Below, piece by piece: positions 18,564 to 49,553 of a stretch of DNA of 64,000 nt. A model generated the notes under the pieces. The model did not search any database. It had not been told where the DNA came from and saw nothing but the letters and a program-made list of their open reading frames with translations. The position numbers and the translations under genes are program-made. This DNA is from Vibrio hyugaensis. Its GTDB lineage: Bacteria > Pseudomonadota > Gammaproteobacteria > Enterobacterales > Vibrionaceae. Within the stretch, counting starts at the first letter, position 1; each line of letters opens with the position of its first letter. The DNA is taken from NCBI RefSeq assembly GCF_002906655.1, contig NZ_CP025795.1, positions 558,001 through 622,000 of the forward strand, read 5' to 3'.

Positions 18564-19709
18564 TTACTGTAGTGCTTTGAAGACTGAACTATTTAACTTC
18601 TTCAACAATAAGTTAAATACATACTTTATGAACTTAAATGATAGATCAGTAATTTTATGAACTACTTTCCCAGCAAATCGGAGCATATGCCCCAATAACC
18701 CTTCTGTTTGCTCCCTAAACCTATCAGAAATTCGGACGATTTTTTCAATGGATCTTGCTACCAGATCATAGAACGTGAAACTGCCTACAAATGCTCCCTG
18801 TATCGCAATTAAACCAACGTATCCAGCTTCCTTTAATAGAGTCCTCAATGCTGCTGCTATTTTGTCAGCCCAATGACCGTTGAACATGACTTGATGACTG
18901 TTCTGAAACTTTAATCTAACAGATCTATGGAGATGTATTTTCGAAGATCTTCCGATGTGTTGCCAAGAGTCTGAAGTAAGTGTTTTTTGATACCCGATAG
19001 AAGATGCTAACTTGTGAGCATCTCCCAAAATACCTACGGATGAGTCGAGTCTGAACTCTGGTTTATCAATAGGTGCATGTACAAATGGCCACAACGGTAC
19101 CATTGGTATGGGGTCGGCACCATTTGTGCAACGGAAAATTGCAAAGTTTGAGTTGGTTGATTTTTGAGCGTAAGGTTGCAAGCCTACACGAGGTGCTCCA
19201 AAGGTATAAAGTACCACATTGATTTTAAAGTTAACTCTAATCCAGTCTGCACACAATGAGGCTATAGCGCCCCCTAAACTATGACCAACACAATGTACTG
19301 TTTTTATGCTGTTAGCATTGCTTTGTATATAGGTAGAGAGGTGGCCTTTCAAACTATGAAATGTGTTAACAAACCCTGCATGAGCACTAGACCCGTTGCT
19401 ACTTCCTTTTATTCCAATATTCAGGTCGGTTAGTTTATCTGCCGTGTAGTCAAAGTTGGTACCTCGGAATGCAAGTACAAATTGCCCATTTTGATCTCCA
19501 GTCCCCTTTGCACAAAGTACGAAATTAGAGATTCTTTTTGAAACTAACCCTAGAGTTGAGCCAGTTTGTGCTTGGATGGTCGTTTTGCCTACATCAAAAG
19601 AGAACTTTTTAGCTAATCTGCGGTGTGGTTTGAATGTTTTAGTATCAAACTCGATATCGTAAGCTTGCTCTGCAAATGTAAGCGCTTCTTTAGGGGAGAG
19701 TGTTTTCAC
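18564..19709 (-). CDS. Class 3 lipase-family alpha/beta hydrolase
   Basis: 381 residues with a lipase class 3 core: oxyanion region 'FVLAFRGTNFDYTADKLTDL', nucleophile elbow 'CVGHSLGGAIASL' (near residue 141), a likely catalytic Asp in 'TNGADPIPMVP' and a candidate His in 'NSHQVMFNGHW'. After about residue 290 there is a hydrophobic/amphipathic C-terminal tail. No signal peptide is visible. Translation starts at GTG immediately after the stop of the upstream gene (19710-20201), with GAGGAG 12 bases before it, so the two are coupled. Lipases of this class without a signal, paired with a small exported protein, occur as type VI effector/immunity pairs; that role here is only inference. It could instead be a housekeeping lipase. 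Confidence 0.8.
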   Translation of the reverse strand: MKTLSPKEALTFAEQAYDIEFDTKTFKPHRRLAKKFSFDVGKTTIQAQTGSTLGLVSKRISNFVLCAKGTGDQNGQFVLAFRGTNFDYTADKLTDLNIGIKGSSNGSSAHAGFVNTFHSLKGHLSTYIQSNANSIKTVHCVGHSLGGAIASLCADWIRVNFKINVVLYTFGAPRVGLQPYAQKSTNSNFAIFRCTNGADPIPMVPLWPFVHAPIDKPEFRLDSSVGILGDAHKLASSIGYQKTLTSDSWQHIGRSSKIHLHRSVRLKFQNSHQVMFNGHWADKIAAALRTLLKEAGYVGLIAIQGAFVGSFTFYDLVARSIEKIVRISDRFREQTEGLLGHMLRFAGKVVHKITDLSFKFIKYVFNLLLKKLNSSVFKALQ

Positions 19710-20201
19710 TTAGTATAACTCCTCAAACGTGAGCTCACTTTGAGAACAAATACTATAAACCTCATTTGTAACAGGCTCATTTTTTGACTCTGGATATGAG
19801 AATACTTTAAGCGGCTCGACTAGATTACAATTTAGGTTTTGCAACGACTTAATGATCGGTTCTGAAACTTGATACGTGTGAAGTTTGGATTGCCATATGG
19901 TTACTTCATTACCATCAAATATCGTACTAACATCCAATTTTACTCTTATATCTTGCAGAGAATGCTGTTTGTGATCAGGTGGTAGAAGAACTGGGCTAAA
20001 CGAGAAATCTCCGTTTTCATCCGTAACGACAGTATCTGTTTTGACTCCGTTATGAACTATAGTCCTCTCTACTTTCAATCCTCCGATAGGTGTTCCGTTT
20101 TGATTTATAGAGCCTTGAATAATAGGACTTAAAGTAAACTCCATGGGTTTCGCTATTCCTTGAAATGTGAAAAAAACTAGCAACAGTAGGTGGTTACGCA
20201 T
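19710..20201 (-). CDS. Exported beta-sandwich protein coupled to the lipase (DUF6795-like)
   Basis: 163 residues with a signal peptide (MRNHLLLLVFFTFQGIAKP). The centre reads like a carboxypeptidase-regulatory/transthyretin-type beta domain: 'GSINQNGTPIGGLKVERT' then 'TVVTDENGDFSFSPV'. This pattern resembles DUF6795 proteins. Two cysteines near the C-terminus ('LNCNL', 'YSICSQS') could form a disulfide. It directly precedes the lipase with stop and start codons adjacent. An exported partner of a lipase could be an immunity protein, chaperone or targeting factor; the sequence does not decide. Confidence 0.65.
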   Translation of the reverse strand: MRNHLLLLVFFTFQGIAKPMEFTLSPIIQGSINQNGTPIGGLKVERTIVHNGVKTDTVVTDENGDFSFSPVLLPPDHKQHSLQDIRVKLDVSTIFDGNEVTIWQSKLHTYQVSEPIIKSLQNLNCNLVEPLKVFSYPESKNEPVTNEVYSICSQSELTFEELY

Positions 20202-22078: not shown

Positions 22079-23539
22079 ATGAACACCTCTGAAACCCGAT
22101 ACGTTTCCCAACAAGTGATTGAAGATGCCTGCGAATGGGCAATCATGCATGGAGTGGCTTTTCGTCAAGCCGATAACACGGCTAGGCATTGTCCATTTAG
22201 TATTGTGCCCATGACGATTGAGCGTGATGTTTATGAGCACCTTAAAACGGTTACTCCGTTGATTGCCAAATTGATTAGCCATGTTTCGGAAGATCATGAC
22301 TTCCTACAGACTTCGCTTTCTGAACTTGCGGAAGCAGATGCATTTTTTGGCCGTTTGATGGAATTACATCGTGAAGTTCATGGTGACATTATCAATCGTA
22401 TCCCCCCTGCGCGTCAGCCATTGCTGCTAATGCGAACAGATTTTATGGATGATCGTAAACACGGCGCAAGAGTGATTGAGTTTAATGGCATTGCGGCAGG
22501 GATGGCGCCTTTTGGTCAACGTGCGACGGAACTGCATCAATTCATAAAAACACAATGGGGCAGCGTATACCAAGATTGGTTAGAAGATGAACATGCGATA
22601 CCAGCAGACAATGTAGGTATGGAGCAACTTGCACTAGGAATAGCGACTGCGGCGAAAAAAGTAAAAGCTCACTTCAACGAAGAGGGAACACCGACTTTCC
22701 TTATGGTGGTGCAAAAAAACGAAGGCAATGTTTACGACCAACACTTGCTAGAAATTGAACTGCAAAAGTTGGACGTTAGGACGGTAAGGCGTACTTTTGA
22801 ACAGCTAAGCTCTAAATTGTCTTCGGGAGAGCGTCAGCGCCTTGTATTGGAAGATATCGGTGGCGTAGATGTGGTGTATTTGCGTGCAGGTTACCAGTAC
22901 ATGGATTACTTTTCACCAGAGCTGAACGAGCCAATTTGCTGCCAGGCATTAAGTCAAACACGTTTGTTTATGGAAAAGCATCACGTAGCGATGAATGCGA
23001 CCATCAGCCAACAGCTCGCGACCAGTAAGTCAATGCAGATGCTGTTAACCATGATGCCAGCGAGCGAGTATCTGCGTTGGGGGCTCAACCCTAAAGAAGC
23101 TGAGTTAGTAAAAAGTGTATTGGCGGATATGAAGCCAATCAACACGGATTCCATTAAATGGTTTGCCGCTTCTGGCAACAAAGACGAATGGGTTCTAAAA
23201 AACCAAGGTGAGGGTGGCGGCCACTGTATCTTTGGTGAAGACATATCAAAACAATTGAGCCGATTACCGAAAGAGCAATATAACGCTTGGGCTTTGATGC
23301 AACGTTTGCATCCGCATGAAAGAGATAAGCCGACTATTGCGGTGCGCGATGGTCAGCAAACACTTGTGAATGATTTGGTGAGTGAAATCGGATTGTTCAC
23401 CGTCCACTACAAAGGTGAGCCTGTCACTGAACTGGATGGTTATGCAGGGTATTTGATTCGCAGCAAGCCCGCCAGTGAAAACGAAGGCGGCATCCACAGT
23501 GGCAAAGGTATCTTGGATTCCCTAGTGCTGGTGGATTGA
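22079..23539 (+). CDS. Eukaryotic-type glutathione synthetase homologue (ATP-grasp)
   Basis: 486 residues, close to human GSS (474). The ATP-grasp features of the eukaryotic GSS fold are visible: a phosphate-binding glycine triad in 'WVLKNQGEGGGHCIFGEDI' (residues ~371-388; GSS has EGGGNN), 'SEIGLFTVHYKGEPV' (GSS 'SELGIFG'), and the C-terminal A-loop 'YLIRSKPASENEGGIHSGKG' (GSS 'HLLRTK...DGGVAAG'). 'VIEFNGIAAGM' corresponds to the 'EINTISAS' substrate region. Bacteria normally use the unrelated-looking GshB; this may make glutathione or ligate a similar gamma-glutamyl peptide. It is a single gene with its own terminator. Confidence 0.8.
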   Translation: MNTSETRYVSQQVIEDACEWAIMHGVAFRQADNTARHCPFSIVPMTIERDVYEHLKTVTPLIAKLISHVSEDHDFLQTSLSELAEADAFFGRLMELHREVHGDIINRIPPARQPLLLMRTDFMDDRKHGARVIEFNGIAAGMAPFGQRATELHQFIKTQWGSVYQDWLEDEHAIPADNVGMEQLALGIATAAKKVKAHFNEEGTPTFLMVVQKNEGNVYDQHLLEIELQKLDVRTVRRTFEQLSSKLSSGERQRLVLEDIGGVDVVYLRAGYQYMDYFSPELNEPICCQALSQTRLFMEKHHVAMNATISQQLATSKSMQMLLTMMPASEYLRWGLNPKEAELVKSVLADMKPINTDSIKWFAASGNKDEWVLKNQGEGGGHCIFGEDISKQLSRLPKEQYNAWALMQRLHPHERDKPTIAVRDGQQTLVNDLVSEIGLFTVHYKGEPVTELDGYAGYLIRSKPASENEGGIHSGKGILDSLVLVD

Positions 23540-23549
23540 AAAAGATAAG

Positions 23550-23587
23550 ACTCTCCGTGAGTGGTGCGCGGAGAGTGTTTTTTCTTT
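23550..23587 (+). terminator. Terminator of the glutathione synthetase-like gene
   Basis: ACTCTCCG pairs with CGGAGAGT around a loop GTGAGTGGTGCG-like, followed by GTTTTTTCTTT. Confidence 0.85.
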
Positions 23588-24017
23588 GATGGGTACAACG
23601 CAACGTATGCTCGTCCAAAGAAACATATCACCAAATATTCCTGCCTATAACGTCGCTACATAGCAAAGCTGATGTGAACAATTATGTCGTTTTTAAACAG
23701 TTAAATTTCGCGCTTAAATATACTCTTAGACAATAATTTGGGGTGATGAATTGCTTTGATCTGACATCTTTGATGAAAATAGGATACTAATTAAATAAAA
23801 CGTTATGTTGTATTTTTATATTGATTAGCCATTTTTAATGTGTTTTTTGTCAGTTTTATCCGTGCATATTGTGATCTTATCAATACTTTATTTTATTGAT
23901 GCAATTATATTTTATTTAATTTGGTTTAAATTTGTCGACGTCAGTCACAAAAGAAAAGGTAAGGAAATAAACTCAATTAATGATCCTTTAACATAGCGCG
24001 ATAATCCTCGTAAGTGA
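23588..24017. other. AT-rich leader region of the flotillin-TelA operon
   Basis: About 430 bases with no convincing ORF, dominated by A/T runs (most AT-rich from 23760 to 23935). It must contain the promoter of the five-gene operon starting at 24018. I see no clear sigma-E, sigma-32 or sigma-54 signature and cannot place a promoter with confidence. Confidence 0.5.
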
Positions 24018-24632
24018 ATGTTGTTGCTAGTAATGACCGATATATTGTTGTCTTTTCCGACCAATGTGTTCTTTGTACCTTTTGTTTTTCTTATCTTGAT
24101 AATGTGCATAGACTTCATATTCAATGTCGTGGATGTCGCCGTCGCTGATATAGACTTATTCGAATCTGGCAATCTATTTAGTGGAGGGTTATTGTTACCT
24201 CCTATATTATCTAAAGTCCCACTAGCGGTGGGCCTGTGCGTGAGCTTCTTCTTCGCCACTATTCTGTCTTTCTATTTGTCTTCTTCTATAGATCAATACA
24301 TTAGTTCTACTGCAGCGATGATTGTGAAAGTCGTTTCTATCCCAGTTAACTTCTATTTGTCTTTGTATATTAGTGCCAAGCTATTAAGCCCATTAGCGCC
24401 ACTCTTCGATAAGAGCAAGGCGTTTGCAAAGGTCGATTTTGTAGGGATGAAAGCAAAAGTGCACAGTGGTGAAGTGAATGCTAAACGCGGTGAAATTATT
24501 GTCCATCATAATGGCAGTGAATTCTTACTGGATGCACGAATATTAGAGTCGGATGCACCCATTGAATATGGAAACGACGTCGTGATCGTTTCTCTAAATA
24601 AACAAAAAAAATATTACATTATTAATCAGTAG
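24018..24632 (+). CDS. YqiJ/NfeD-like inner-membrane protein, flotillin partner
   Basis: 204 residues. Three hydrophobic segments (about 10-38, 65-88, 98-118) precede a C-terminal soluble OB-fold-like domain: 'FVGMKAKVHSGEVNAKRGEI', 'IEYGNDVVIVSLNKQKKYYI'. This is the layout of E. coli YqiJ (a NfeD relative), whose gene precedes the flotillin yqiK, as here. NfeD-like proteins anchor flotillins at the membrane. The start could be the ATG at 24018 or 24033; neither has a good ribosome binding site. It is the first gene of the operon and lies 21 bases before the flotillin gene. Confidence 0.78.
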   Translation: MLLLVMTDILLSFPTNVFFVPFVFLILIMCIDFIFNVVDVAVADIDLFESGNLFSGGLLLPPILSKVPLAVGLCVSFFFATILSFYLSSSIDQYISSTAAMIVKVVSIPVNFYLSLYISAKLLSPLAPLFDKSKAFAKVDFVGMKAKVHSGEVNAKRGEIIVHHNGSEFLLDARILESDAPIEYGNDVVIVSLNKQKKYYIINQ

Positions 24633-24653
24633 CTAGAAAATTAAGGAGCAGCT

Positions 24654-26741
24654 ATGCAGATTTCTCCAAGTCTGATATTCCTTGGAATTGGTATCGGGAT
24701 TTTTTTGATTATTCTTGTGTTTCTTACCACCCGATATAAAAAAGTTCGAGGCGAGGGCGATGCACTCATTGTAAACGGACTGCATGCCACACGCGCTTCT
24801 TTAACGGGTACTTTTGTATGGCCGGTTATCAACAAATTTGAGTTCATGGATATTACTCGTAAAAAAATCTCGGTTGTTCGAAGCGGTCGCAAAGATCAAG
24901 AAGGCGAAGAATATGAGGGCCTGCACTGCCGAGATAATATTCGTGCGGACCTTAAAGTCGATTTCTATATCGGTGTGAATCATGAAGAAGAAGACATTGT
25001 CCGTGTTGCCAAGCTCTTTACTGCCCATGATGCTTCTAACCTAGATCGCCTGAAAGAGCATTTCCAACCTAAGTTTTCTGAAGCACTTAAAACGGCGGTA
25101 AAACAGTTTGAATTCGAAGAACTGTTAACCAATCGTCGAGCGTTCCGTGATGCCGTTGTTGAAGTAATCGGTAGTGAAATGGACGGCTTCAAAATCTATG
25201 ACGTTGTGATCGATAAAGTCGACCAAACGGCTCTAGATGCGCACAGTCCAGGCAACATTCTCGATGTCGAAGGCATTCGTAAAATCTCTGCTATTACCGC
25301 GCAAAAGAACACGGAAACGAATGCGATTCGTCAGGATGAGCAAACGACAATTAAGAAGAAAAACGTTGAGGCTGAAGCGAACCGTCTCCAGCTTGATAAA
25401 CAAGAGAAAGAGAGCATTGCTCGCACTCAGCGTGAAATCGATATTATCAAAGCGCAAGAAGAAGCGTTGGCCGCTGAAAAGCGTGAAGAATATGAGCGAA
25501 TTACTAAGCTAGCGGAACTTGAAACCGAGGAAGAAGTCGCTAAGAAACGCGAGAGTGTCGAGATGGAAGTCGAGATGACACGCATTGCAAACCAGCGTCA
25601 AGTCGCGATTCAACAAGAAGAGCTAAATCGTTCTGTAGAGACTGAGCGAGTTCGCACTTCGTCGGAAGTCGCCGAAAAAGAAATGCAGAAAGAGACGACG
25701 GTCGAAGAAGCGATGAAGTCTGTTGCAGAGACGCGTTCTCAACGTGTTGAAATCGAGCGTAAGATTGCACGTGAAGAGGAAGAAACAGAGAATTTACGTG
25801 TTAATGAACGTGTAAACCGTGAAAAACGCATCAAACTGACGGAGGCTGAAGCCGTCGCTGAAGCCGCTCAAATTGAACTGCTTGTTGCGGCACGAGCTGA
25901 AAAAGATGCAGCTCGCGAGCGTTCTGAACGTATCTTGATTGAAAACGAAGCTGAGCTGAAAGTGAAAACACGCGATGCGGAAAATGAGCTTGCGGTGAAG
26001 ACTCGCCAAGCGGAAGCGGAACAGGTTGTGACGACCAAGCGTGCAGAAGCTGAGTTCGTATCAAAAGATCGCGAAGCGGCAGCGAAAGAGCGAATGGCAC
26101 AAGCTGAGAAAGAAATGATCAGTGCAACAGGCCTAGCTGAAGTGGAAGTGGAACGTGAGCGTGCCCTTGCGATTAAAGAGACAGGGGAAGCAGAAGCTTA
26201 CACCTTGCAAAGTGCGGGTGAAGCGGAAGCGCAAGCACTGCGTGCGAAAGGTTTGGCAGAAGCAGAAGCGCAAACTGCTCGCTTTGAGGCTGCTCAACAA
26301 TACGATGATCACACTCGTGAGCACGACAAGTGGGTTATGCAGCTACAGCAAGAGAAAGACCTTGAAATGGCGCGTATTGACGCTCAGAAAACCGTGGTTG
26401 GGGCGAACGCTCAAGCCTTGGGTGAAGCCTTGTCTAAAGCTGATATCCGTTTGTTTGGTGGTGAAGGGATGGAGCAAATCCGTCGCACTATCATGGATGC
26501 CGCTGTCGTTGATGCGAAGTTTAATGAGTCAGAAGTCCTTAACCCATTGGTTTCAGACTATGTGAATGGAAACCGTAGTCTGCCACAAGACATCAAAGAC
26601 GTGTTAGAGAGTACAGAACTGAAAAGCAGTGATTTGAGCAACGTTGCTTTAGCGGGGTTGCTGAATTCACAAGGTGGCGCCGCGGAGCTGATGAAGAAAA
26701 TTCAAAGCTCATTAGACACAACAACCAGCGATAAATCTTAA
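24654..26741 (+). CDS. YqiK-like flotillin (SPFH domain)
   Basis: 695 residues: an N-terminal membrane segment (5-25, 'LIFLGIGIGIFLIILVFLTT'), the SPFH/band-7 domain (about 30-210, 'TRYKKVRGEGDALIVNG', 'GLHCRDNIRADLKVDFYIGV'), then a very long charged coiled coil (about 210-580, rich in E/K/R/A, with 'GEAEAYTLQSAGEAEAQALR' as in other flotillins) and a globular C-terminus. Flotillins oligomerise on the inner face of the membrane and organise microdomains and protein complexes. AGGAGC precedes the ATG. A strong hairpin (26760-26787) separates it from the next gene. Confidence 0.9.
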   Translation: MQISPSLIFLGIGIGIFLIILVFLTTRYKKVRGEGDALIVNGLHATRASLTGTFVWPVINKFEFMDITRKKISVVRSGRKDQEGEEYEGLHCRDNIRADLKVDFYIGVNHEEEDIVRVAKLFTAHDASNLDRLKEHFQPKFSEALKTAVKQFEFEELLTNRRAFRDAVVEVIGSEMDGFKIYDVVIDKVDQTALDAHSPGNILDVEGIRKISAITAQKNTETNAIRQDEQTTIKKKNVEAEANRLQLDKQEKESIARTQREIDIIKAQEEALAAEKREEYERITKLAELETEEEVAKKRESVEMEVEMTRIANQRQVAIQQEELNRSVETERVRTSSEVAEKEMQKETTVEEAMKSVAETRSQRVEIERKIAREEEETENLRVNERVNREKRIKLTEAEAVAEAAQIELLVAARAEKDAARERSERILIENEAELKVKTRDAENELAVKTRQAEAEQVVTTKRAEAEFVSKDREAAAKERMAQAEKEMISATGLAEVEVERERALAIKETGEAEAYTLQSAGEAEAQALRAKGLAEAEAQTARFEAAQQYDDHTREHDKWVMQLQQEKDLEMARIDAQKTVVGANAQALGEALSKADIRLFGGEGMEQIRRTIMDAAVVDAKFNESEVLNPLVSDYVNGNRSLPQDIKDVLESTELKSSDLSNVALAGLLNSQGGAAELMKKIQSSLDTTTSDKS

Positions 26742-26759
26742 CCCTTCATTCTCTCTAAG

Positions 26760-26787
26760 AAATCCCGCTTCCTCGCAAGCGGGATTT
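26760..26787 (+). terminator. Intra-operon hairpin after the flotillin gene (attenuator or partial terminator)
   Basis: AAATCCCGCTT pairs with AAGCGGGATTT (11-bp perfect stem, 6-base loop). There is no T-run after it (ATAGGT follows), so it is more likely an mRNA-stabilising or attenuating structure than a full terminator. It ends 12 bases before the ATG of the downstream ATPase gene. Confidence 0.65.
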
Positions 26788-26799
26788 ATAGGTATTAGC

Positions 26800-29700
26800 A
26801 TGTCAGATATGACTCAAAAAGCGGTGAGTGATGCTGGTGCATACGATGTTTTAAAGACGCGTTTGTTGCAGCAAGGCAGCCAGCTAAAGTCTCTCTCCCA
26901 ATCCTTCAATCAGCAACGTCAAGAAACGTTTGGCGGTCAAGATTTTAACTTGATCGGCAAGGTCAATGTTCAAACCGATGCCAAGTGTATTCCGATCGAC
27001 ATGGCTCAGGTAAACCAGCATTTACTGTTCGGTTATCATGTCCAAGTCGGGATGAAAGCGACGCCTTCATTGGATGATGTCTTCGGGCTTTATCTCCTCC
27101 ATGAAAATGAAGGTACATTTCGTGTAGAACGTCTCCCACTTGAATCCAGTTTTTTATCGGATTCTCGTTTTACCCATGAATTGTCGGAACTGTTTACTTA
27201 CTACCGAGACGCGAGGCTTTCTCAAATCTCTCGTCAAGAAAGCACGCTTTACCTCGCCTTCCAAATCGGAATGCGCCCGGAAGACAGGAAAGTATTTCGT
27301 TTTCAGATCAACGCCCACTCTATCGAGTACATTGATTCTTTGGGGCAAAATGCGCTAACCAGTGTTCCTCAACATGATTTTGATTGGATCCCAACAACGC
27401 GAGATGATCATGTGCTTGGCGATCACCCGCATGTATCTCTTCAAGATAAGCTGTTTGTTGAATGTGTGGGTGGGGACTTAACCATCAAGGTGGAAGACAA
27501 CACCAAAGATGGCAAAGGTATCTACAGAGAGGAAGTTGAAGATCCTCATCAAAGCGTTGCTGATGCACAGATCGACTACGCGTTTGTCGGAGACTTAATC
27601 GCGCTACGAGTAAAGCCAAACCGAGAAAAACACGCTCGATACTTCCTCTACAATTCAGTGAATCAGTCCGTCGTAAGGGCTGATGCATTAAGGGCAAGTG
27701 CAAAAACGTTACCTGAAGATCATGGTGTGCTTTACGCTAATGGTTATGTTTTATCAAATGGCGAAGACAAACAGTTCGCCTTTGAAGCTGACCAGCTCAA
27801 GTTTTTCCAACAGATCACGTCACCGAATGGTGAAGACATTCTTTATATCTTTTTCAACGCCGTTGAAGGTTATTACATCGCCTACACCTACAACTTGATT
27901 GAAAAGAAATTTGAAGCGCCAATGGAAAGCCACGGTTACAGCTTATACCCAGATGGCCGCTGGTTAGTGTTTCAACTGTCAGAAAATGAAGAAGCGTCTA
28001 CCATCCACCCAATGAGAATTTGGGATACGCCATTTTCTACACCAGAGCACTATGCGAAGGTCAATGCGCAAACTCAAGGCAGTAGTCCGCTTTTCAATCT
28101 TGGTAATACTGAGCTAGTGCGAGCACTGTCTTCTGTACTCTCGATTTGCCAATTAGCACAGAGTGAAGAGGTGACTCAAGCGGCCTATGAGGTACTGATA
28201 AAGCAGTGTCGTTCAACGCTCGATCACTACACCTGGCTCAATCATGATTACGCTTGTGGAATAGGCAGTGCGATCAATGAACTCATGGGGACTACCGATA
28301 AGATCATCGATGAGTTTGCCAAAGTTCAACAGCTACAAAAACATGCAGCAAGCAGTCTTGATGAGCAAAAATCTGCGGTTTCCGAGCTTATCGGGAAAAT
28401 CAAACTGGCACCCAAAGAGCAAGCGAACACGCTACTGAGTTTACTTAGTGAGGTAAAAGGGCAAGTTGGCGTGACTATGTCGCTCCGTCAGCAGCATTAT
28501 ATTGATGAGGTTCAAGTCGACCGTTTGCTTGAAGAATTACAGGCACAGCGTGAGTCACTTAACCTACACTTGCTCACTCTTCTTCAGGACGAAAAAGCGT
28601 ACGTCCCGTTCAAGAAGCAAATTCAGAAAATCGAGTTACAACTCGAAGAAGTGAGCAAAACGGCGGAGATTCAGAAACTCAGCGAAGAAGTGGAAACACT
28701 TCGTCATGAGCTTCAAATAGTGACGGAAGAAGTTACAGACATCGAAACCGAAGACCCGACACAAGCGACTCGAATTTTAGACCTTACGACAGAAGTAACG
28801 TCTTTACTTAATACTGTTTCAGCGAAGCTAAGAGCAAAATCTCAAGGCTTACAAAGTGAAGAAGCTCAAGCGGAATTTAGTGCTCAATTTAAGCTGCTCA
28901 GCCAATCGGTGAGCAGTGCAATGGAGCAAGCATTAACGCCAGATGATTGTGATACTCAACTTGCTAAGCTTGTTGGGCAACTTGATAAGTTAGAGTCGCG
29001 TTTTGCAGATTTCGACCAGTTTTTGACCGAAATATATTCAAAGCGTGATGAGATCCAATCGACACTGGATAACCACAAGCAACAGCTCATAGCGGGTCAA
29101 CAACGTCGAGTTCAAAACTTGCTCCAAGCGGCGAATGTCACTATGAGCAGTGTAGAAAAGCGCGTTGAACGATTTGATGATGTCGCAGGGCTAAATAGTT
29201 ACTTTGCTACTGATGCAATGGTACTTAAGCTACAACAGTTGTCTCAGACTATTCGTGACCTTGGCGATAGTGTGAAAGCTGATAGTGTTGACGCAAAATT
29301 GAAATCGCTTCAAGACCAATCTTTGCGAGCGTTACGAGATAACCAAGACATCTTCGAGAAAGGTGGAACCGTTCTGCGTTTGGGCAAGCATCGGTTCAGT
29401 GTGAACCAGCAACCACTTGACCTTAGTTTGGTCGATCAAAGTGGTGAATTGGCGTTACACATTTCCGGAACGGATTTTTACCAAGCGGTAGAAGACCAAG
29501 CATTCCTCGACTTGCAAACCGTTTCTCGTTTAGACGTAGCCTCAGAAAGTGAAGATGTCTATCGAGCGGAATATCTGGCGTATTTGATATTGCATCAAGC
29601 TTCTATCAATCAAGATGGGCAGAGCCTAGAAACGCTTTATGAAGCTTTGAAAGAAGATAAGTTGAATGAACTCGTCCAACGCTTTGCGGCACCACGTTAT

Positions 29701-31662
29701 CGAGAAGGGTACGTCAAAGGTATCCACGACCACGATGCAGTCAACATTTTACTTAAAGTGCTGCCTGTTTATCAGCAAGCGGGTTTACTACGTTACAGCC
29801 AAACTGCTCGCTCAAAAGCCATCTTGTGGTTATTGGAGCAAGATGCTGAACGAATAGAGCATTATCAACAACAGGCACAAAACGCTAAGTTATTACGAGA
29901 GCATTTAAATGCATCGCAAGCGTATCAAGAGCTGCAAAAACAACTGGTTGATTCCCTAAATGATGATCAACATGAAGCCGCTGACTACCTTGCGCAGCTA
30001 TTGAGTGAGCAAGATTGGCAAATCGAAGTGAGTCAGGATTCTCTTTCTCTCTGTGAAGATTATTTGCAATTCAGACGCAGTTTGGGCTGGCAACCTCAAC
30101 CGCTCAGCTTTACTGAATCATTTAACGATCACCACCAGTGGCTCAGTGCGTACACTACTAAAAAGCAATACGGTCAGGCATTCGCGTGTGAGGCTGCAAC
30201 GGTTGCTGTCGTGAATACCATGTCTGAGCAAAGGTTAGGTAGTGTCGACTTTTCATTGGTGTGTCATGTCGAGGGGTTATTGGGAGAACACGCTCGAATA
30301 AATAAGGGCAGTGTAGAGCTCGTGTTGGATGACTTTATTCAAAGAAACGAGCATCATCGAAGCTCGGTGGTTCCGAACTTCGAAGCCTATCTATCGCAGC
30401 GTACCCAGTTGCTGAGCTCTGCCAAAGAAGACTTTCGTCTTGGTGAATTCAAACCTCGCCCATTGACGTCATTTGTTCGCAACAAGTTGATCAGTGAGAG
30501 TTACTTACCTCTTATTGGTGACAACTTTGCTAAGCAAATGGGCACGTTAGGCGACAAAAAGCGTACTGATTTGATGGGTATGCTACTTCTTATCTCTCCG
30601 CCTGGTTACGGTAAAACGACGTTAATTGAGTATGTTGCGCACAAATTAGGCTTGGTGTTCATGAAGATCAATGGCCCTTCCATCGGTCATCAAGCGACAT
30701 CCCTCGATCCAGCCGATGCTCCCGATCAAAATGCGGCGCGTGAAATTGAAAAAATTAACCTCGCGTTCGAGATGGGCAACAACGTGTTGCTGTACTTGGA
30801 TGATATTCAACATACCCATCCTGAGTTTTTACAGAAATTCATCTCACTCTGTGATGGCACGCGTCGAATAGAGGGAACATGGAAAGGGAAAACGAAAACC
30901 TACGACATGCGTGGCAAAAAGTTTGCCGTCGTGATGGCGGGTAACCCGTACACCGAGAGTGGTGAAGCGTTCCGAATCCCGGATATGTTGGCTAACCGTG
31001 CGGACATCTACAACCTCGGTGATATGCTGTCTGACCAAAAAGCGATCTTCGATTTAAGCTTCATCGAAAACTCGCTCACATCCAACAATGTTCTTGCGCC
31101 TTTAGCGACACGAGATCTGAATGATTTGTACCGCTTTGTCAGAATGGCTGAGGGGGAAAACATCGCGCTGAGTGAGATGAGCCATTCTTACTCTGCTATT
31201 GAATCTGGCGAGATCGTGACGACCCTACAAAAACTGATCATGGCGCAGCAAATTGTCTTGAAGGTGAACCAGCAGTACATCAAGTCAGCCGCAACAGCGG
31301 ACCAGTATCGCGTTGAACCGCCGTTTAAGCTGCAAGGCTCGTATCGAAACATGAATAAACTGGCGGAGAAAATATCGTCAGTGATGACCGACCAAGAGAT
31401 GAACACGCTGCTTCAAGATCACTATCAGGGTGAAGCGCAAACGCTGGCTGCGGGCACTGAAGAGAACCTACTCAAACTTGCAGAGTTACGCGGTGACATG
31501 ACGGATGAACAGCAAGCTCGTTGGTCTGAAATCAAAGAAGGGTATCAGCGTCAGCAAATGATGGGTGATTCCGAAGACCGAGCAGGACAGGTGGTGCAGC
31601 AACTTGCGATGCTGAATCAACATGTTGCTCGATTTGGTCGTCATGATCAGGAGGGAAGCTAA
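26800..31662 (+). CDS. DUF3686-type giant AAA+ ATPase ('DNA repair ATPase' family)
   Basis: 1620 residues. The N-terminal third (about 20-480) fits DUF3686, found on very large proteins annotated as DNA-repair ATPases. Residues ~515-850 are predicted coiled coil ('KIELQLEEVSKTAEIQKLSE'). The AAA+ module is at about 1255-1500: Walker A 'LLISPPGYGKTTLIEY' (near 1265), Walker B 'NVLLYLDDIQHTHPEF' (near 1330), a sensor-like 'FAVVMAGNPYTESGE' and 'PDMLANRADIYNL', which resembles MoxR-type ATPases. The 'DNA repair' name is inherited and untested. Next to flotillin and TelA, a membrane-remodelling or complex-assembly role is equally plausible. Confidence 0.82.
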   Translation: MSDMTQKAVSDAGAYDVLKTRLLQQGSQLKSLSQSFNQQRQETFGGQDFNLIGKVNVQTDAKCIPIDMAQVNQHLLFGYHVQVGMKATPSLDDVFGLYLLHENEGTFRVERLPLESSFLSDSRFTHELSELFTYYRDARLSQISRQESTLYLAFQIGMRPEDRKVFRFQINAHSIEYIDSLGQNALTSVPQHDFDWIPTTRDDHVLGDHPHVSLQDKLFVECVGGDLTIKVEDNTKDGKGIYREEVEDPHQSVADAQIDYAFVGDLIALRVKPNREKHARYFLYNSVNQSVVRADALRASAKTLPEDHGVLYANGYVLSNGEDKQFAFEADQLKFFQQITSPNGEDILYIFFNAVEGYYIAYTYNLIEKKFEAPMESHGYSLYPDGRWLVFQLSENEEASTIHPMRIWDTPFSTPEHYAKVNAQTQGSSPLFNLGNTELVRALSSVLSICQLAQSEEVTQAAYEVLIKQCRSTLDHYTWLNHDYACGIGSAINELMGTTDKIIDEFAKVQQLQKHAASSLDEQKSAVSELIGKIKLAPKEQANTLLSLLSEVKGQVGVTMSLRQQHYIDEVQVDRLLEELQAQRESLNLHLLTLLQDEKAYVPFKKQIQKIELQLEEVSKTAEIQKLSEEVETLRHELQIVTEEVTDIETEDPTQATRILDLTTEVTSLLNTVSAKLRAKSQGLQSEEAQAEFSAQFKLLSQSVSSAMEQALTPDDCDTQLAKLVGQLDKLESRFADFDQFLTEIYSKRDEIQSTLDNHKQQLIAGQQRRVQNLLQAANVTMSSVEKRVERFDDVAGLNSYFATDAMVLKLQQLSQTIRDLGDSVKADSVDAKLKSLQDQSLRALRDNQDIFEKGGTVLRLGKHRFSVNQQPLDLSLVDQSGELALHISGTDFYQAVEDQAFLDLQTVSRLDVASESEDVYRAEYLAYLILHQASINQDGQSLETLYEALKEDKLNELVQRFAAPRYREGYVKGIHDHDAVNILLKVLPVYQQAGLLRYSQTARSKAILWLLEQDAERIEHYQQQAQNAKLLREHLNASQAYQELQKQLVDSLNDDQHEAADYLAQLLSEQDWQIEVSQDSLSLCEDYLQFRRSLGWQPQPLSFTESFNDHHQWLSAYTTKKQYGQAFACEAATVAVVNTMSEQRLGSVDFSLVCHVEGLLGEHARINKGSVELVLDDFIQRNEHHRSSVVPNFEAYLSQRTQLLSSAKEDFRLGEFKPRPLTSFVRNKLISESYLPLIGDNFAKQMGTLGDKKRTDLMGMLLLISPPGYGKTTLIEYVAHKLGLVFMKINGPSIGHQATSLDPADAPDQNAAREIEKINLAFEMGNNVLLYLDDIQHTHPEFLQKFISLCDGTRRIEGTWKGKTKTYDMRGKKFAVVMAGNPYTESGEAFRIPDMLANRADIYNLGDMLSDQKAIFDLSFIENSLTSNNVLAPLATRDLNDLYRFVRMAEGENIALSEMSHSYSAIESGEIVTTLQKLIMAQQIVLKVNQQYIKSAATADQYRVEPPFKLQGSYRNMNKLAEKISSVMTDQEMNTLLQDHYQGEAQTLAAGTEENLLKLAELRGDMTDEQQARWSEIKEGYQRQQMMGDSEDRAGQVVQQLAMLNQHVARFGRHDQEGS

Positions 31663-32367
31663 ATGAATCGACAGAAATGGTCAGCGTGGTTAGAGGCCTC
31701 GATACAAGATTACCGCCTAGATGATAGTGAGCGAAGAGAACTTCAATCGGAGCTGCAGGATTCGGTATTAAGTCATGAAGACCGCTCATACCTGCGGAAT
31801 TTGAGCTTTAAGCTTGTACAACAAGAAATACAAAACCAGGGCGATGCTGCTGCTCTGGTTCGCTGGTTAGAGCGAGTGGTCAAAGTCTTAGATAATGTAA
31901 TGAGTGCGAACTTAGCAGATACCGCGTCAAGTTGGTTTTCACCGGGTAGAGCGTGCGCGTCCGGCATCATTGAACAGCTGAAACTGGCTCGTCATTCAGT
32001 GGATATCTGCGTTTTCACTATTGCAGATAATGACCTAACCGATCAGATCCTTTCGGCGCATAAAAGAGGTGTGGCGGTCCGAATCGTGACCGACAACGAC
32101 AAAATGTACGATAAAGGTAGTGATGTTGAATATCTTGCAGCACAAGGTGTCGCGGTTAAAATTGATACCACTCGATACCATATGCACCATAAGTTCGCGA
32201 TATTCGATCAACAACGGTTGATCAATGGCAGCTTTAACTGGACGCGCAGTGCTTCTAAATACAATCAGGAAGATATCACGCTTACCGACGATCGCAGGTT
32301 TGTTTCTGCGTTCTCAAGACAATTTGAAACGTTATGGCAAAAGTTCCCTTGCCATAAGCCGTCATAA
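31663..32367 (+). CDS. Single-HKD phospholipase D-like protein
   Basis: 234 residues. A PLDc_2-type domain covers about residues 85-230 with one HKD motif, 'HHKFAIFDQQRLINGSFNWT' (residues ~171-190), so an active enzyme would need a homodimer, as in Nuc or mitochondrial PLD. The N-terminal ~80 residues are charged and helical and I recognise no domain there. Such enzymes cut phosphodiester bonds in lipids or nucleic acids; the substrate cannot be told. The gene starts directly after the ATPase stop (TAA then ATG), with GGAGG upstream inside the preceding gene, so translation is coupled. Confidence 0.85.
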   Translation: MNRQKWSAWLEASIQDYRLDDSERRELQSELQDSVLSHEDRSYLRNLSFKLVQQEIQNQGDAAALVRWLERVVKVLDNVMSANLADTASSWFSPGRACASGIIEQLKLARHSVDICVFTIADNDLTDQILSAHKRGVAVRIVTDNDKMYDKGSDVEYLAAQGVAVKIDTTRYHMHHKFAIFDQQRLINGSFNWTRSASKYNQEDITLTDDRRFVSAFSRQFETLWQKFPCHKPS

Positions 32368-32382
32368 ATATAGGGAGATCCC

Positions 32383-33441
32383 ATGACCGAATTGATGAAT
32401 TCTGAACATCAGGTACTTGAGGTGGACGCTACTCCTCAAATCGTCGCGCTAGCAGAGCAATTTGATGCGTTTGACAGTGTGGCGACGATCACTTTTGGTA
32501 AAGAAGCACTAGAAAAAATCACCGCTTTCTCTGACGAAGTATTAGAGCAAGTTCGTGTTCGAGATAGTGGTGAAGCTGGCGATATCCTGCATGCCATGGT
32601 GTCGTCCATGGACAGCGCTGAATTCTCTAATTTAGGCAAAACCAGCTTGTTATCGAGACTTCCTCTAGTCGGTGAGCTTTTTGATTCATTCAAAAAATTC
32701 TCGGCTAGTTTTGATTCAGTGAAGAGCCAACTGGAACAGCTTTCAGGGCGTTTAGAAGCGCAAGAAATGAAGTTGGCTCATGATATTACCCAACTCGATA
32801 CGCTCTATGACCACAACTTAGATCTACTTGGCGGATTAGAACAGTACATTGCCGCTGGTAAGTATAAGTTAAATCAGCTTACTCAGAATGTGTTACCAAG
32901 CTTACTGGCACAATCTGAGCAAAGTGGTGACGCGTTGGATGCCCAGAAATATCGTGATGCGACCCAAGCCGTTGCGCGTTTAGAGAAGCGCGTGCATAAC
33001 CTTGAGCTTACTCGCCTTGCTGCCATCCAAACCGCGCCCCAGATTCGATTGTCTCAAGAAGGCAATAAAATGCTGATGGAAGACATTCAAGATATCGTTC
33101 ACAACACCTTCCCGTTGTGGAAGCGCCAATTCTTGATTGCGATTTCCAATTACGAAAAAGAGAAAGCGTTGAAGGTAACGCGCGCGGTGAAGGATTACAC
33201 CAATAAGCAATATGTACAAAACGCGGAGAAACTGAAGGCGTTAGAAGAACAAATTGCAGAAAACTACCAGCGTGGCATTCTCGACCTCGATTCTCTAGAG
33301 ACCGTGAATCAACTGACGATAGAAACGCTGAACAATACGCTATCGCGAGTGAAGGAAGGCAGAGCGCAACGTGAGCAGGCTCAGCAAGTGATTGAGCGAG
33401 CAGAGGCGGAACTTAAACAAGCGCTTCAGCAAACCTTGTAA
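32383..33441 (+). CDS. TelA-family protein (toxic anion resistance family)
   Basis: 352 residues, full family length. TelA signatures: 'SLLSRLPLVGELFDSFKKF' (about 86-104), 'DTLYDHNLDLLGGLEQYIAA', 'ARLEKRVHNLELTRLAAIQT' followed by 'APQIRLSQEGNKML', 'NTFPLWKRQFLIAISNYEKE' and the C-terminal coiled coil. TelA proteins are linked to tellurite, envelope and general stress resistance, often in Ter-type gene sets; the mechanism is unknown. AGGGAG precedes the ATG. Last gene of the operon, 15 bases after the PLD gene. Confidence 0.9.
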   Translation: MTELMNSEHQVLEVDATPQIVALAEQFDAFDSVATITFGKEALEKITAFSDEVLEQVRVRDSGEAGDILHAMVSSMDSAEFSNLGKTSLLSRLPLVGELFDSFKKFSASFDSVKSQLEQLSGRLEAQEMKLAHDITQLDTLYDHNLDLLGGLEQYIAAGKYKLNQLTQNVLPSLLAQSEQSGDALDAQKYRDATQAVARLEKRVHNLELTRLAAIQTAPQIRLSQEGNKMLMEDIQDIVHNTFPLWKRQFLIAISNYEKEKALKVTRAVKDYTNKQYVQNAEKLKALEEQIAENYQRGILDLDSLETVNQLTIETLNNTLSRVKEGRAQREQAQQVIERAEAELKQALQQTL

Positions 33442-33455
33442 GGTGAATCATCAAG

Positions 33456-33523
33456 AAATCACTCCCTTACTCGTTTTTTATATACTTTTAACTAGTAATA
33501 GAAAATAGGGAGTGATTTTTTTG
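33456..33523 (+). terminator. Candidate terminator of the flotillin-TelA operon
   Basis: AAATCACTCCCT pairs with AGGGAGTGATTT (12-bp perfect stem) and is followed by TTTTGG, but the loop is long (39 bases, AT-rich). It lies 15 bases after the telA stop. Confidence 0.6.
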
Positions 33524-33582
33524 GTAAAAGAGACAGCGTGGTTTTATGCCGAGTTTACAGAACCACATCAGCGGTGATGCGC

Positions 33583-33780
33583 TTACATGTGACCAGAACC
33601 ATGGAACATGCCACCGAACATTCCGCCAAATATCATCCCTAAAATGCTGAAGATGATCCCTAGAATGATCATTGCAGGGATTGAAGCGATAGCGAACTTG
33701 ACCATAAAGATCACCATCGACATAAATGGCATCTTAATATCAACAACAGTCACTTCTTGTTTTGTAGTTTCATCAGACAC
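33583..33780 (-). CDS. Small membrane protein, glycine/methionine-rich C-terminus
   Basis: 65 residues from a GTG start at 33780, chosen because GGAG lies 7 bases upstream at good spacing and the longer ATG version adds residues of unlikely composition. A 16-residue soluble head ('SDETTKQEVTVVDIKMP') leads into one or two membrane segments, then 'GMIFGGMFGGMFHGSGHM', which is glycine zipper-like with terminal His. No family recognised. It converges on telA, so it is not part of that operon. Confidence 0.6.
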   Translation of the reverse strand: MSDETTKQEVTVVDIKMPFMSMVIFMVKFAIASIPAMIILGIIFSILGMIFGGMFGGMFHGSGHM

Positions 33781-33943
33781 GAGCGTTCTCCTAAATTTGC
33801 ATTCTGAATATGCAGCCAGTTTATTACACTCCAACTTAAGAAAACGTTGAGCTGCGTTGCGCTTTTCCCTTTATGGGATAGCAACTGATTAATCTGAGAA
33901 ATACGGCACGCTATGAATCGCTATCGGAAGCGGGTAAAGCCTT

Positions 33944-35035
33944 TCAACCAAGCGCCGGATAATCCGTATAGCCGTGTTCATTGCCACCAAATAATGTAGA
34001 GCCGTCCAGTTCAGCCAGAGGTTGGTGGTGCTTTAAGCGCGCCACCAAATCTGGGTTAGAAACAAACGGGCGTCCAAACGCCACTAAATCCGCATAACCC
34101 TTCTCAAGTACCTCGTCAGCACGATCTTGGGTATAACTGCCAGCGACGATAATCGTGTTAGTGAAGTATTCGCGCAGTTCGATGCGGAAACTTTCTGGAA
34201 TCACTGGTGCGTCGTCCCAATCGGCTTCAGACAGGTGCAAGTACGCAATATCACGAGCTTGAAGTTGTTTCGATGCATCGAGGATGGTTGGCACAATGTC
34301 TGGGCAGTTCATGTCCTTGAAAGTGATGAAAGGTGCGAGTCGTACTCCCACTTTGTTGGCACCAATGGCTTCGCTCACCGCATCGACCACTTCTAATAAA
34401 AAGCGAAGTCGGTTTTCGCGAGTACCGCCGTAGTTGTCGGTTCTGTGATTTGAATTGGTACGTAGGAACTGGTCAATCAGGTAACCATTACCGCCGTGGA
34501 TTTCAACGCCATCGAAGCCTGCTTCAATCGCACGTTTTGCTGCATGGGCGAAATCACTCACTACACGGTCAATATCCGATTGAGTCATGGCTCGAGGCTT
34601 TACACAATCGACCATGTTGCCATTGCCTTGTTCGTCGGCAATCCACACTTGGGTTTCTACAGGTTTTAGTGCTGATGGGGCAATAGGCTGTTCGCCTTTT
34701 TGGAATGTCGGGTGTGATACACGGCCAACATGCCATAACTGACAAAACATAGCTGCGCCTTGCTCTTTTGCTGCTTGAGTGACGGTTTTCCAGCCTGCCA
34801 CTTGCTCATCAGTGTAGACGCCTGGTGTGAATGAGTAACCCTGCGAATCGTCTGAAATCTGGGTGGCTTCAGAGATAATTAAGCCCGCGGTTGCGCGCTG
34901 CTTGTAGTAAGTCGCCATTATTTGGTTTGGAATGTTGCCCGGTTGGCTGGTGCGCGCTCGGGTCATTGGAGCCATGACTACGCGGTTTTGTAGATTCAGT
35001 TGTTTCAACTGTGTTGGTTCAAATAGTTTGCTCAT
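33944..35035 (-). CDS. Old Yellow Enzyme-family flavin oxidoreductase (NemA-like)
   Basis: 363 residues, an FMN-dependent ene-reductase that reduces activated alkenes, nitro compounds or N-ethylmaleimide-like electrophiles with NAD(P)H. Motifs: 'NRVVMAPMTRARTSQPGNIP' at the N-terminus, 'ATYYKQRATAGLIISEATQI', 'CQLWHVGRVSH' and 'GFDGVEIHGGNGYLIDQFL', and 'LVAFGRPFVSNPDLVARL' near the end. The substrate-binding 'His/Asn' region is the 'HGGNGYL' stretch. It is the last gene of a four-gene set (SDR, MFS, glutaredoxin, this) and starts 10 bases after the glutaredoxin gene. Confidence 0.9.
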   Translation of the reverse strand: MSKLFEPTQLKQLNLQNRVVMAPMTRARTSQPGNIPNQIMATYYKQRATAGLIISEATQISDDSQGYSFTPGVYTDEQVAGWKTVTQAAKEQGAAMFCQLWHVGRVSHPTFQKGEQPIAPSALKPVETQVWIADEQGNGNMVDCVKPRAMTQSDIDRVVSDFAHAAKRAIEAGFDGVEIHGGNGYLIDQFLRTNSNHRTDNYGGTRENRLRFLLEVVDAVSEAIGANKVGVRLAPFITFKDMNCPDIVPTILDASKQLQARDIAYLHLSEADWDDAPVIPESFRIELREYFTNTIIVAGSYTQDRADEVLEKGYADLVAFGRPFVSNPDLVARLKHHQPLAELDGSTLFGGNEHGYTDYPALG

Positions 35036-49545: not shown

Positions 49546-49553
49546 GGGGTACT

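What the first reader, a model, noticed from the sequence alone, without database searches (positions are those of the whole stretch)
24018..33441. YqiJ-flotillin-DUF3686 ATPase-PLD-TelA operon: a candidate undescribed membrane stress or defence system
Seen directly: five same-strand genes with gaps of 21, 58, 0 and 15 bases. Each has a clear family mark: NfeD/YqiJ-like anchor, SPFH flotillin with a ~370-residue coiled coil, a 1620-residue protein with DUF3686 plus a MoxR-like AAA+ module, a single-HKD phospholipase D-like enzyme and TelA. Known: YqiJ-YqiK pair, and TelA's link to envelope/toxic-anion stress and to Ter-type stress gene sets. Inference: the flotillin makes a membrane scaffold, the giant AAA+ acts as a remodeller, PLD cuts lipid or nucleic acid, and TelA senses or transmits stress. 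I know of no named system with this exact set.
Basis: partly seen in the sequence, partly recalled or inferred. Interest (0 to 1): 0.88.

Follow-up and report, generated by a model that had tools for sequence, protein, structure and literature searches.

The report
Flotillin–AAA+ membrane module with TelA
A five-gene cassette in a marine Vibrio builds a flotillin-and-giant-ATPase membrane machine of a kind already described, but it encodes the poorly understood "tellurite resistance" protein TelA where related bacteria encode the membrane-repair protein PspA, which suggests a testable role for TelA.

Summary
The five genes at 24018-33441 are real, co-directional, followed by a strong terminator-like hairpin, and form a discrete cassette: absent at two relatives' empty sites, in varied flanks across Vibrionaceae, and present with TelA in all 21 of 227 Vibrio genomes that have the giant ATPase. 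The core (YqiJ-like protein, flotillin, AAA+ ATPase with DUF3686, single-HKD PLD) is not undescribed: Ravi et al. 2024 predicted it as a PspA-linked membrane-remodelling operon, and its Pseudomonas form matches the bac operon, whose genes rise on phage infection. What I found in no searched paper is TelA's part. Among 110 distinct ATPase loci, 34 encode PspA and 30 TelA; one encodes both. TelA entered such loci at least twice (Vibrionaceae, Lysobacteraceae), from distant TelA branches. My reading: a PSP-type envelope-maintenance module in which TelA takes the PspA position. TelA has no detectable sequence relation to PspA, the fold comparison was inconclusive, and Vibrio genomes keep PspA elsewhere, so this would be functional, not homologous, replacement and is unproven. 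Dedicated anti-phage defence is possible but unsupported. Verdict: new variant of a known kind.

The parts
23550..23576 (+). Terminator-like hairpin after the upstream glutathione synthase gene; left border of the unit
   Evidence: 10-pair stem and T run; conserved at the empty site of L155 and L156
23583..24017 (+). Upstream region that should hold the promoter; starts at the empty-site junction
   Evidence: junction at 23594 (L155) and 23582 (L156); no convincing promoter by sigma70 or sigma54 scans
24018..24632 (+). YqiJ-like (NfeD-type) membrane protein, 204 aa
   Evidence: profile match to E. coli YqiJ 91.5%; hydrophobic stretches
24654..26741 (+). SPFH/flotillin protein, 695 aa
   Evidence: profile match to E. 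coli YqiK 99.9%
26800..31662 (+). Giant AAA+ ATPase with DUF3686 and DUF7902, 1620 aa; Walker A at 30598-30621, Walker B at 30790-30813
   Evidence: Pfam; motifs
31663..32367 (+). Single-HKD PLD of the Nuc/NucT/MitoPLD type with an N-terminal helical part, 234 aa
   Evidence: Pfam, PDB sequence match E 1.5e-28, model pLDDT 91, fold search
32383..33441 (+). TelA (PF05816), 352 aa
   Evidence: Pfam 264 bits, cut-off 30; model: long helical hairpin, pLDDT 61.7
33456..33522 (+). Terminator-like hairpin with T run after telA; right border of the unit
   Evidence: fold -27.6 kcal/mol, z -6.9, 0 of 200 shuffles as good; coordinates

Best explanation
The cassette encodes an inner-membrane maintenance machine of the PSP-linked kind; it works like the bac operon and Ravi's flotillin-AAA+ operon. 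The YqiJ-like protein and the flotillin form a membrane scaffold (inferred from families). The giant AAA+ ATPase, with intact Walker motifs (shown), is recruited to it and remodels a partner protein on the cytoplasmic face (inferred). In Pseudomonas and other lineages the locus also encodes PspA with its DUF2170/CesT-like chaperone; in Vibrionaceae and part of Lysobacteraceae both are absent from the locus and TelA is encoded (shown). TelA therefore most likely does the PspA-type job of a helical, membrane-associated effector (inferred, about 45%). The PLD, which keeps its catalytic motif (shown), probably acts on phospholipid such as cardiolipin at the damaged patch (inferred, about 50%; nuclease is the alternative) and is optional. 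Core belongs to the described operon family: about 95%. Role in envelope or membrane stress: about 75%.
For: Same core and order in 110 distinct loci: SPFH in 105, YqiJ-like in 100; 4 of the 5 loci without SPFH start near a contig end. Ravi et al. 2024 describe this core with CesT/Tir-PspA; named Pseudomonas loci read DUF2170-PspA-YqiJ-SPFH-AAA, most with PLD. PspA in 34 and TelA in 30 of 110 loci, both in 1. TelA gained at least twice on the ATPase tree, from TelA branches on opposite sides of a 100/100 branch. In Lysobacteraceae the TelA loci nest among PspA loci, with L111 carrying both; the four without local PspA have no PspA_IM30 match in the genome searched. Cassette behaviour: empty sites, varied flanks. 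PA3728-PA3732 rise on phage infection (PMC12041424).
Against: TelA and PspA share no detectable sequence similarity and the fold comparison is inconclusive. All 21 Vibrio genomes with the module keep PspA elsewhere, as do the 4 other Vibrionaceae genomes and 25 of 30 genomes whose locus has neither protein, so PspA may still serve the machine. Lack of PspA is common in Lysobacteraceae anyway: 70 of 198 genomes have it. 47 of 110 loci have neither, so no local partner is obligatory. Only two TelA gains, so a tree-aware test of exclusion has no power. No phenotype is known for this gene set.
Confidence: 0.6

Rival explanations
1. TelA is a co-transcribed passenger: the module works on PspA encoded elsewhere, and TelA answers a separate threat.
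For: PspA is elsewhere in all 21 Vibrio genomes with the module; Ravi et al. suggest abbreviated operons use PspA from elsewhere; L111 carries both.
Against: 21 of 21 association in Vibrio, module moves with TelA, second independent recruitment in Lysobacteraceae, where 4 of 5 TelA genomes show no PspA.
Confidence: 0.2
2. A dedicated anti-phage (or anti-toxin) defence system: the ATPase senses membrane attack and the PLD cuts lipid or nucleic acid.
For: Patchy, cassette-like distribution; PLD has weak likeness to DISARM DrmC; the related P. aeruginosa genes rise on infection by phage (PMC12041424, one passage).
Against: No PADLOC match for the other four proteins and DrmC at 35.6 bits against a cut-off of 133; phage induction is what a general phage-shock response would also show; the PLD is missing in 5 of 25 Vibrionaceae loci.
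Confidence: 0.12
3. A tellurite or toxic-anion resistance cassette named by TelA.
For: TelA family name; other TelAs of the same Vibrio species sit in Ter-like operons.
Against: No TerD-type gene among the 16 window proteins scanned; the rest of the module occurs without TelA in 80 of 110 loci.
Confidence: 0.06
4. A DNA-repair machine, as the Pfam label 'ATPase involved in DNA repair' says, with the PLD as nuclease.
For: Pfam label and plasmid annotations; PLD closest by VIA-align to Nuc and NucT.
Against: Encoded with flotillin in 105 and a YqiJ-like membrane protein in 100 of 110 loci, and with PspA in 34; no paper found names DUF3686.
Confidence: 0.05

Closest known systems
PspA-linked band-7/flotillin + AAA+ + YqiJ (+ PLD) operon of Ravi et al. 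2024 (PMC11237479)
   Same: YqiJ-like protein, TM-band7-flotillin protein, giant AAA+ ATPase, HKD hydrolase in some Proteobacteria (section 19)
   Different: No CesT/Tir-PspA dyad at the locus; TelA instead, which the paper's main text does not mention; its supplementary tables were not readable here
bacABCDEF of Pseudomonas aeruginosa (PMC10948618)
   Same: bacC NfeD-type and bacD SPFH (PMC13086221, passages); PA3728 listed as ATPase (PMC8190622); named Pseudomonas loci have the ATPase next and usually the PLD
   Different: bacA (DUF2170) and bacB (PspA) are lacking here and TelA is added; bacE/bacF identity inferred, not checked on PA14 DNA; the sigma54 site proposed for bac has no counterpart here
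E. coli yqiJ-yqiK
   Same: NfeD-type protein plus flotillin
   Different: No ATPase, PLD or TelA
Mitochondrial PLD6/Zucchini and bacterial Nuc/NucT
   Same: Single-HKD PLD fold, about 22-35% identity over the catalytic part
   Different: Extra N-terminal helical part (residues 1-83); substrate unknown
Ter operons with TelA
   Same: TelA family
   Different: Ter-like operons of other Vibrio loci carry TerD, StiP-PELOTA and a C-C bond lyase (L163), absent here

Membership tests
[quoted passage not shown]
   99.9% profile match to YqiK, N-terminal hydrophobic stretch, charged Ala-rich stretch; coiled coil by composition only
Ravi 2024 / bac-type flotillin-AAA+ operon | AAA+ module with intact Walker motifs on a very large protein | tested here: met
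Ravi 2024 / bac-type flotillin-AAA+ operon | N-terminal beta-propeller and coiled coil on the ATPase | not tested
Ravi 2024 / bac-type flotillin-AAA+ operon | YqiJ/YuaF-type membrane protein | tested here: met
   91.5% profile match to E. coli YqiJ
Ravi 2024 / bac-type flotillin-AAA+ operon | HKD hydrolase in some members | tested here: met
Ravi 2024 / bac-type flotillin-AAA+ operon, full form | CesT/Tir (DUF2170)-PspA dyad in the operon | tested here: not met
   no match in the other 24 Vibrionaceae loci on either strand; no ORF of such kind in the window operon. The paper also describes abbreviated forms without the dyad
PspA/ESCRT-III | sequence homology of TelA to PspA | tested here: not met
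   profile probability 0.5-1% for three TelA groups
PspA/ESCRT-III | ESCRT-III fold in TelA | tested here: inconclusive
   pLDDT 61.7; Vipp1 fourth in Foldseek at E 0.13, not significant
TelA (PF05816) | match above curated cut-off | tested here: met
   264 bits against 30
TelA (PF05816) | tellurite or toxic-anion resistance | not testable with these tools
   needs experiment
Ter stress operon | TerD-type genes beside TelA | tested here: not met
   none among the 16 window proteins scanned with Pfam; not every window gene was scanned
DISARM (DrmC) | PLD above the DrmC cut-off | tested here: not met
   35.6 bits against 133
Nuc/NucT/MitoPLD single-HKD enzymes | one HKD motif in the PLD fold | tested here: met
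   motif in the window and in 37 of 37 other PLDs; fold
Nuc/NucT/MitoPLD single-HKD enzymes | dimer with shared active site | not testable with these tools
   no complex prediction offered

The most novel reading that the evidence does not exclude
TelA, long called a tellurite-resistance protein, is a general non-homologous stand-in for PspA/ESCRT-III-type membrane-remodelling proteins. It has been recruited at least twice by the flotillin-AAA+ machine. It is also the partner in all 8 loci read of an OmpA-VWA-PBP/OmpA-TelA-transporter operon (4 of the 8 were found through TelA itself and are biased; the other 4 through the PBP-OmpA protein) that resembles one which Ravi et al. describe with PspA or Snf7.
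Probability: 0.3. Interest if true: 0.8.

Novelty: new variant of a known kind. Interest (0 to 1): 0.56.

Why it matters
TelA is widespread (matches in Bacillus subtilis, Lactococcus lactis and Methanosarcina acetivorans among 14 control genomes) and has no accepted mechanism that I know of. Its near-exclusive alternation with PspA in a membrane-remodelling operon would give it a concrete, testable one: a helical membrane effector worked by a dedicated AAA+ ATPase. It would also show that bacterial ESCRT-like machines can change their filament component.

Tried and rejected
Upstream glutathione synthase gene (22079-23539) as a sixth member: rejected. A terminator-like hairpin separates it; no match to it at E 1e-5 lay in the stretches fetched around 113 other loci; two relatives without the module have the gene at the same place and L062 has the module there without the gene; 73 of 227 Vibrio genomes have a DNA match to it.

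Sigma54 promoter as proposed for bac: the best site upstream of the first gene is equalled by 30 of 300 simple shuffles and is not conserved. Sigma70 scan: 7 sites against 15.1 in shuffles.

Extra ORF of about 233 aa between ATPase and TelA in Lysobacteraceae as a TelA paralogue: weak hint only (probability 19% to Lysobacteraceae TelA, 5% to the main TelA alignment). PLD N-terminal part as TerB-like (my guess): no Pfam support; the PLD fold-search rows cover only about residues 85-234. Similarity of that extra ORF to the small protein next to TelA in the OmpA-type operon: none.

PMC8926400 (passages) for a link of PA3729 to antagonism defence: it appears only in a pull-down table at about 1.3-fold over control. 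PMC10210962 (one passage): PA3728 only listed as hypothetical. ATPase relatives: none in 50,697 phage records, 12 of 72,556 plasmid records.

Tree-aware test of TelA/PspA exclusion: 2 independent pairs only, so no significance possible.

Not in print: TelA with this gene set was not found in searches of a library of CC0/CC BY/CC BY-SA papers; the supplementary tables of PMC11237479 were not readable here.

Rows dropped or limited: four duplicates (L072, L074, L080, L087) of 113 fetched loci; L068 left out of the ATPase tree (broken gene); L020 and L076 entered it with their largest ORF only. Loci are the best 80 of at least 584 confirmed in a capped scan, so they lean to close relatives. PspA/DUF2170 on the opposite strand (L017, L149) are not counted as members. 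Several loci end near the operon, so 'neither' is an upper bound. PspA was searched in 39 + 7 of the 76 distinct named genomes; TelA was not searched genome-wide in those. TelAs of the OmpA-type operons were not in the TelA tree.
Full report
OBSERVATION. Five + strand ORFs sit at the stated coordinates with gaps of 21, 58, 0 and 15 bases. Pfam confirms DUF3686, DUF7902 and an AAA+ module on the 1620-aa protein, PLDc_2 on the 234-aa protein and TelA on the 352-aa protein; the first two proteins have no Pfam hit at E 0.01. Their names hold through profile comparison: proteins recruited with the window sequence alone match E. coli YqiJ (91.5%, E 8.7e-7) and YqiK (99.9%, E 2.7e-34), E. coli PspA serving as negative control (an earlier comparison that also used E. 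coli seeds gave 83% and 99.9%). The one + strand terminator-like site that the scan finds in 23400-34000 is at 23550-23576, before the first gene. A second hairpin with a T run at 33456-33522, missed by that scan because of its long loop, follows telA and folds better than all 200 shuffles (z -6.9).

A UNIT THAT COMES AND GOES. The window lies on contig 2 of a two-contig 5.6-Mb genome; a Vibrio campbellii record (LJC015) encodes all five proteins at 89-99% identity. DUF3686 occurs in 21 of 227 genomes of the genus and in 10 of 369 gammaproteobacterial genomes drawn evenly, this one included. Two relatives without it (G537, G515) match the window up to 23594 and 23582 and again from 33638 and 33616, with only 49 and 38 bp between: a clean empty site. 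L062 carries the module in the same surroundings without the glutathione synthase gene; L064 matches only 24031-33519. For 25 Vibrionaceae loci the nearest upstream ORF of at least 150 aa falls into 12 clusters and the nearest downstream one (24 loci have one) into 10; 12 loci share one site on both sides, which I recognise from memory as mutS on one side and pncC/recA on the other. Some of these nearest ORFs may be spurious, so the cluster numbers are rough. No ORF other than the five genes stands out in the inserted stretch. Order and direction are the same in the 25 Vibrionaceae loci (genes split in L068 and L076), and gaps are small.

RELATIVES. I annotated 33 loci from whole genomes and 80 named loci (the best 80 of a capped scan) with profiles built from the window, E. 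coli references and first-round hits. After removing four duplicates and adding the window, 110 distinct loci remain. SPFH is found in 105, a YqiJ-like gene in 100. On the ATPase strand 34 have PspA, 30 have TelA, 38 have the PLD, one (L111, Lysobacter xinjiangensis) has PspA and TelA together, and 47 have neither PspA nor TelA. The TelA loci are 25 of Vibrionaceae (Vibrio, Enterovibrio, Photobacterium, Veronia) and 5 of Lysobacteraceae (Luteimonas, Xanthomonas chitinilytica, two Stenotrophomonas, L. xinjiangensis). Walker A is intact in 108 of 110 ATPases, Walker B in 107, and the sensor motif AGNPYTE in 98; the HKD motif is in 37 of 37 other PLDs. The PLD is missing from 5 of 25 Vibrionaceae loci (L051, L054, L055, L066, L077).

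TELA CAME IN TWICE. On a tree of 109 ATPases (quick method, SH-aLRT only, long branches flagged) TelA needs two changes, and starred branches force both. In Lysobacteraceae the TelA loci nest in a clade whose other members carry PspA, and L111 with both is sister to the four with TelA only; gain of TelA followed by loss of DUF2170-PspA is the simplest reading. On a TelA tree of 55 rows the five Lysobacteraceae TelAs form one group (100/99) next to TelAs of Ter-like operons, across a 100/100 branch from all 25 Vibrionaceae locus TelAs. The Vibrionaceae ones are not an exclusive clade: one database protein (P0066) and two long-branched Vibrio TelAs (L168, L170) fall among them. The four Lysobacteraceae genomes with TelA and no local PspA have no PspA_IM30 match at E 0.001, whereas L109, L111 and L138 do (completeness of these genomes is not told). 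But only 70 of 198 genomes of that family have a PspA match, so this alone is weak. All 21 Vibrio genomes with the module keep PspA elsewhere. Of 39 other genomes tested, 34 have PspA: 4 of 4 Vibrionaceae with TelA, 5 of 5 with a local PspA, and 25 of 30 whose locus has neither.

THE PLD. Sequence and fold place the catalytic part with Zucchini/MitoPLD, Nuc and NucT. The model (pLDDT 91) has four N-terminal helices (1-83) that no listed structure covers. Lipid or nucleic acid as substrate is open.

LITERATURE. Ravi et al. 2024 (PMC11237479; [quoted passage not shown] 'TelA' has 0 occurrences in its main text. The bac paper (PMC10948618; passages) shows six co-transcribed genes, bacA being DUF2170 and bacB PspA, with biofilm phenotypes. 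PMC13086221 (passages) reports PA14_16160 as NfeD-type and PA14_16180 as SPFH, with about 20% less biofilm in the SPFH mutant. PMC8190622 (passages) lists PA3728 as an ATPase. PMC12041424 (one passage) reports PA3728-PA3732 up in all phage-infected samples. PMC2636767 (passages) supports the NfeD-SPFH pairing. The 10 named Pseudomonas or Stutzerimonas loci fetched, one a duplicate, have the order DUF2170-PspA-YqiJ-SPFH-AAA, 8 of them followed by PLD, so bacE and bacF are very probably this ATPase and PLD, which I did not check on PA14 DNA. A plasmid of P. fluorescens SBW25 (pQBR103) joins DUF2491, DUF350, DUF1190 and glutathionylspermidine-synthase genes to YqiJ-SPFH-AAA, linking two of Ravi's operon groups.

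OTHER HOMES OF TELA. In three module-bearing Vibrio genomes another TelA sits in a Ter-like operon (L163-L165; Pfam was run on L163 only: two TerD genes, StiP-PELOTA, C-C bond lyase). In four Vibrio genomes TelA sits in an operon of OmpA, VWA, PBP-OmpA fusion, a small protein (hydrophobic stretches by eye), TelA, substrate-binding protein and permease (L166, L167, L169, L171). Searching with the PBP-OmpA protein found strong copies (E 1e-110 or better) in 3 of 369 class genomes and 1 of 249 phylum genomes; all four stretches read (L175, L176, L177, L186) again contain TelA and none a PspA hit. Seven weaker matches in the phylum search were not read. Ravi et al. mention PspA or Snf7 in operons with an ABC ATPase, permease and PBPB-OmpA protein. 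Whether these are the same operon was not compared directly.

JUDGEMENT. The set is a real, mobile, co-inherited module of a described kind in a TelA-bearing variant. Shown: unit, order, intact motifs, two separate TelA recruitments, near-exclusion of PspA at the locus. Inferred: scaffold, remodelling and lipid-trimming roles, and TelA in PspA's role. Not shown: any phenotype of this gene set, or defence.

Noticed in passing
window 45878-50381: VgrG-like protein (Phage_GPD, gp5 domains; 771 aa) followed by two ORFs (450 and 275 aa) without Pfam match in a stretch of low GC (0.349): looks like an orphan type VI secretion cargo cassette.
   Followed up: no
window 22079-23539: Eukaryotic-type glutathione synthase gene (PF03917); a separate accessory gene at the same site, found by DNA in 73 of 227 genomes of the genus.
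   Followed up: partly
window 18564-20201, - strand: Class 3 lipase gene (PF01764) with a 163-aa ORF beside it.
   Followed up: no
L171:3617-11689 and L166, L167, L169, L175, L176, L177, L186: Conserved operon OmpA, VWA, PBP-OmpA fusion, small protein, TelA, substrate-binding protein (not found in L176), permease (L177 is cut by its contig); TelA in 8 of 8 loci read.
   Followed up: partly
L116:15340-16041, L133:15340-16047, L106, L096, L111: ORF of about 233 aa between the ATPase and TelA in the Lysobacteraceae TelA loci, no Pfam family; weak likeness to TelA.
   Followed up: partly
L158 (pQBR103 86440-103356): YjfK-YjfL-YjfM-YjfC-type genes directly followed by YqiJ-SPFH-AAA on a Pseudomonas plasmid.
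   Followed up: no
12 Vibrio loci: L022, L023, L051-L057, L059, L063, L068: Half of the Vibrionaceae copies share one site on both flanks (mutS to pncC/recA, recognised from memory): possible insertion hotspot.
   Followed up: no
L163:4783-11940: Ter-like operon with TelA, a TelA-like second protein (95.9% profile match), two TerD, StiP-PELOTA and C-C bond lyase genes in a module-bearing Vibrio.
   Followed up: partly
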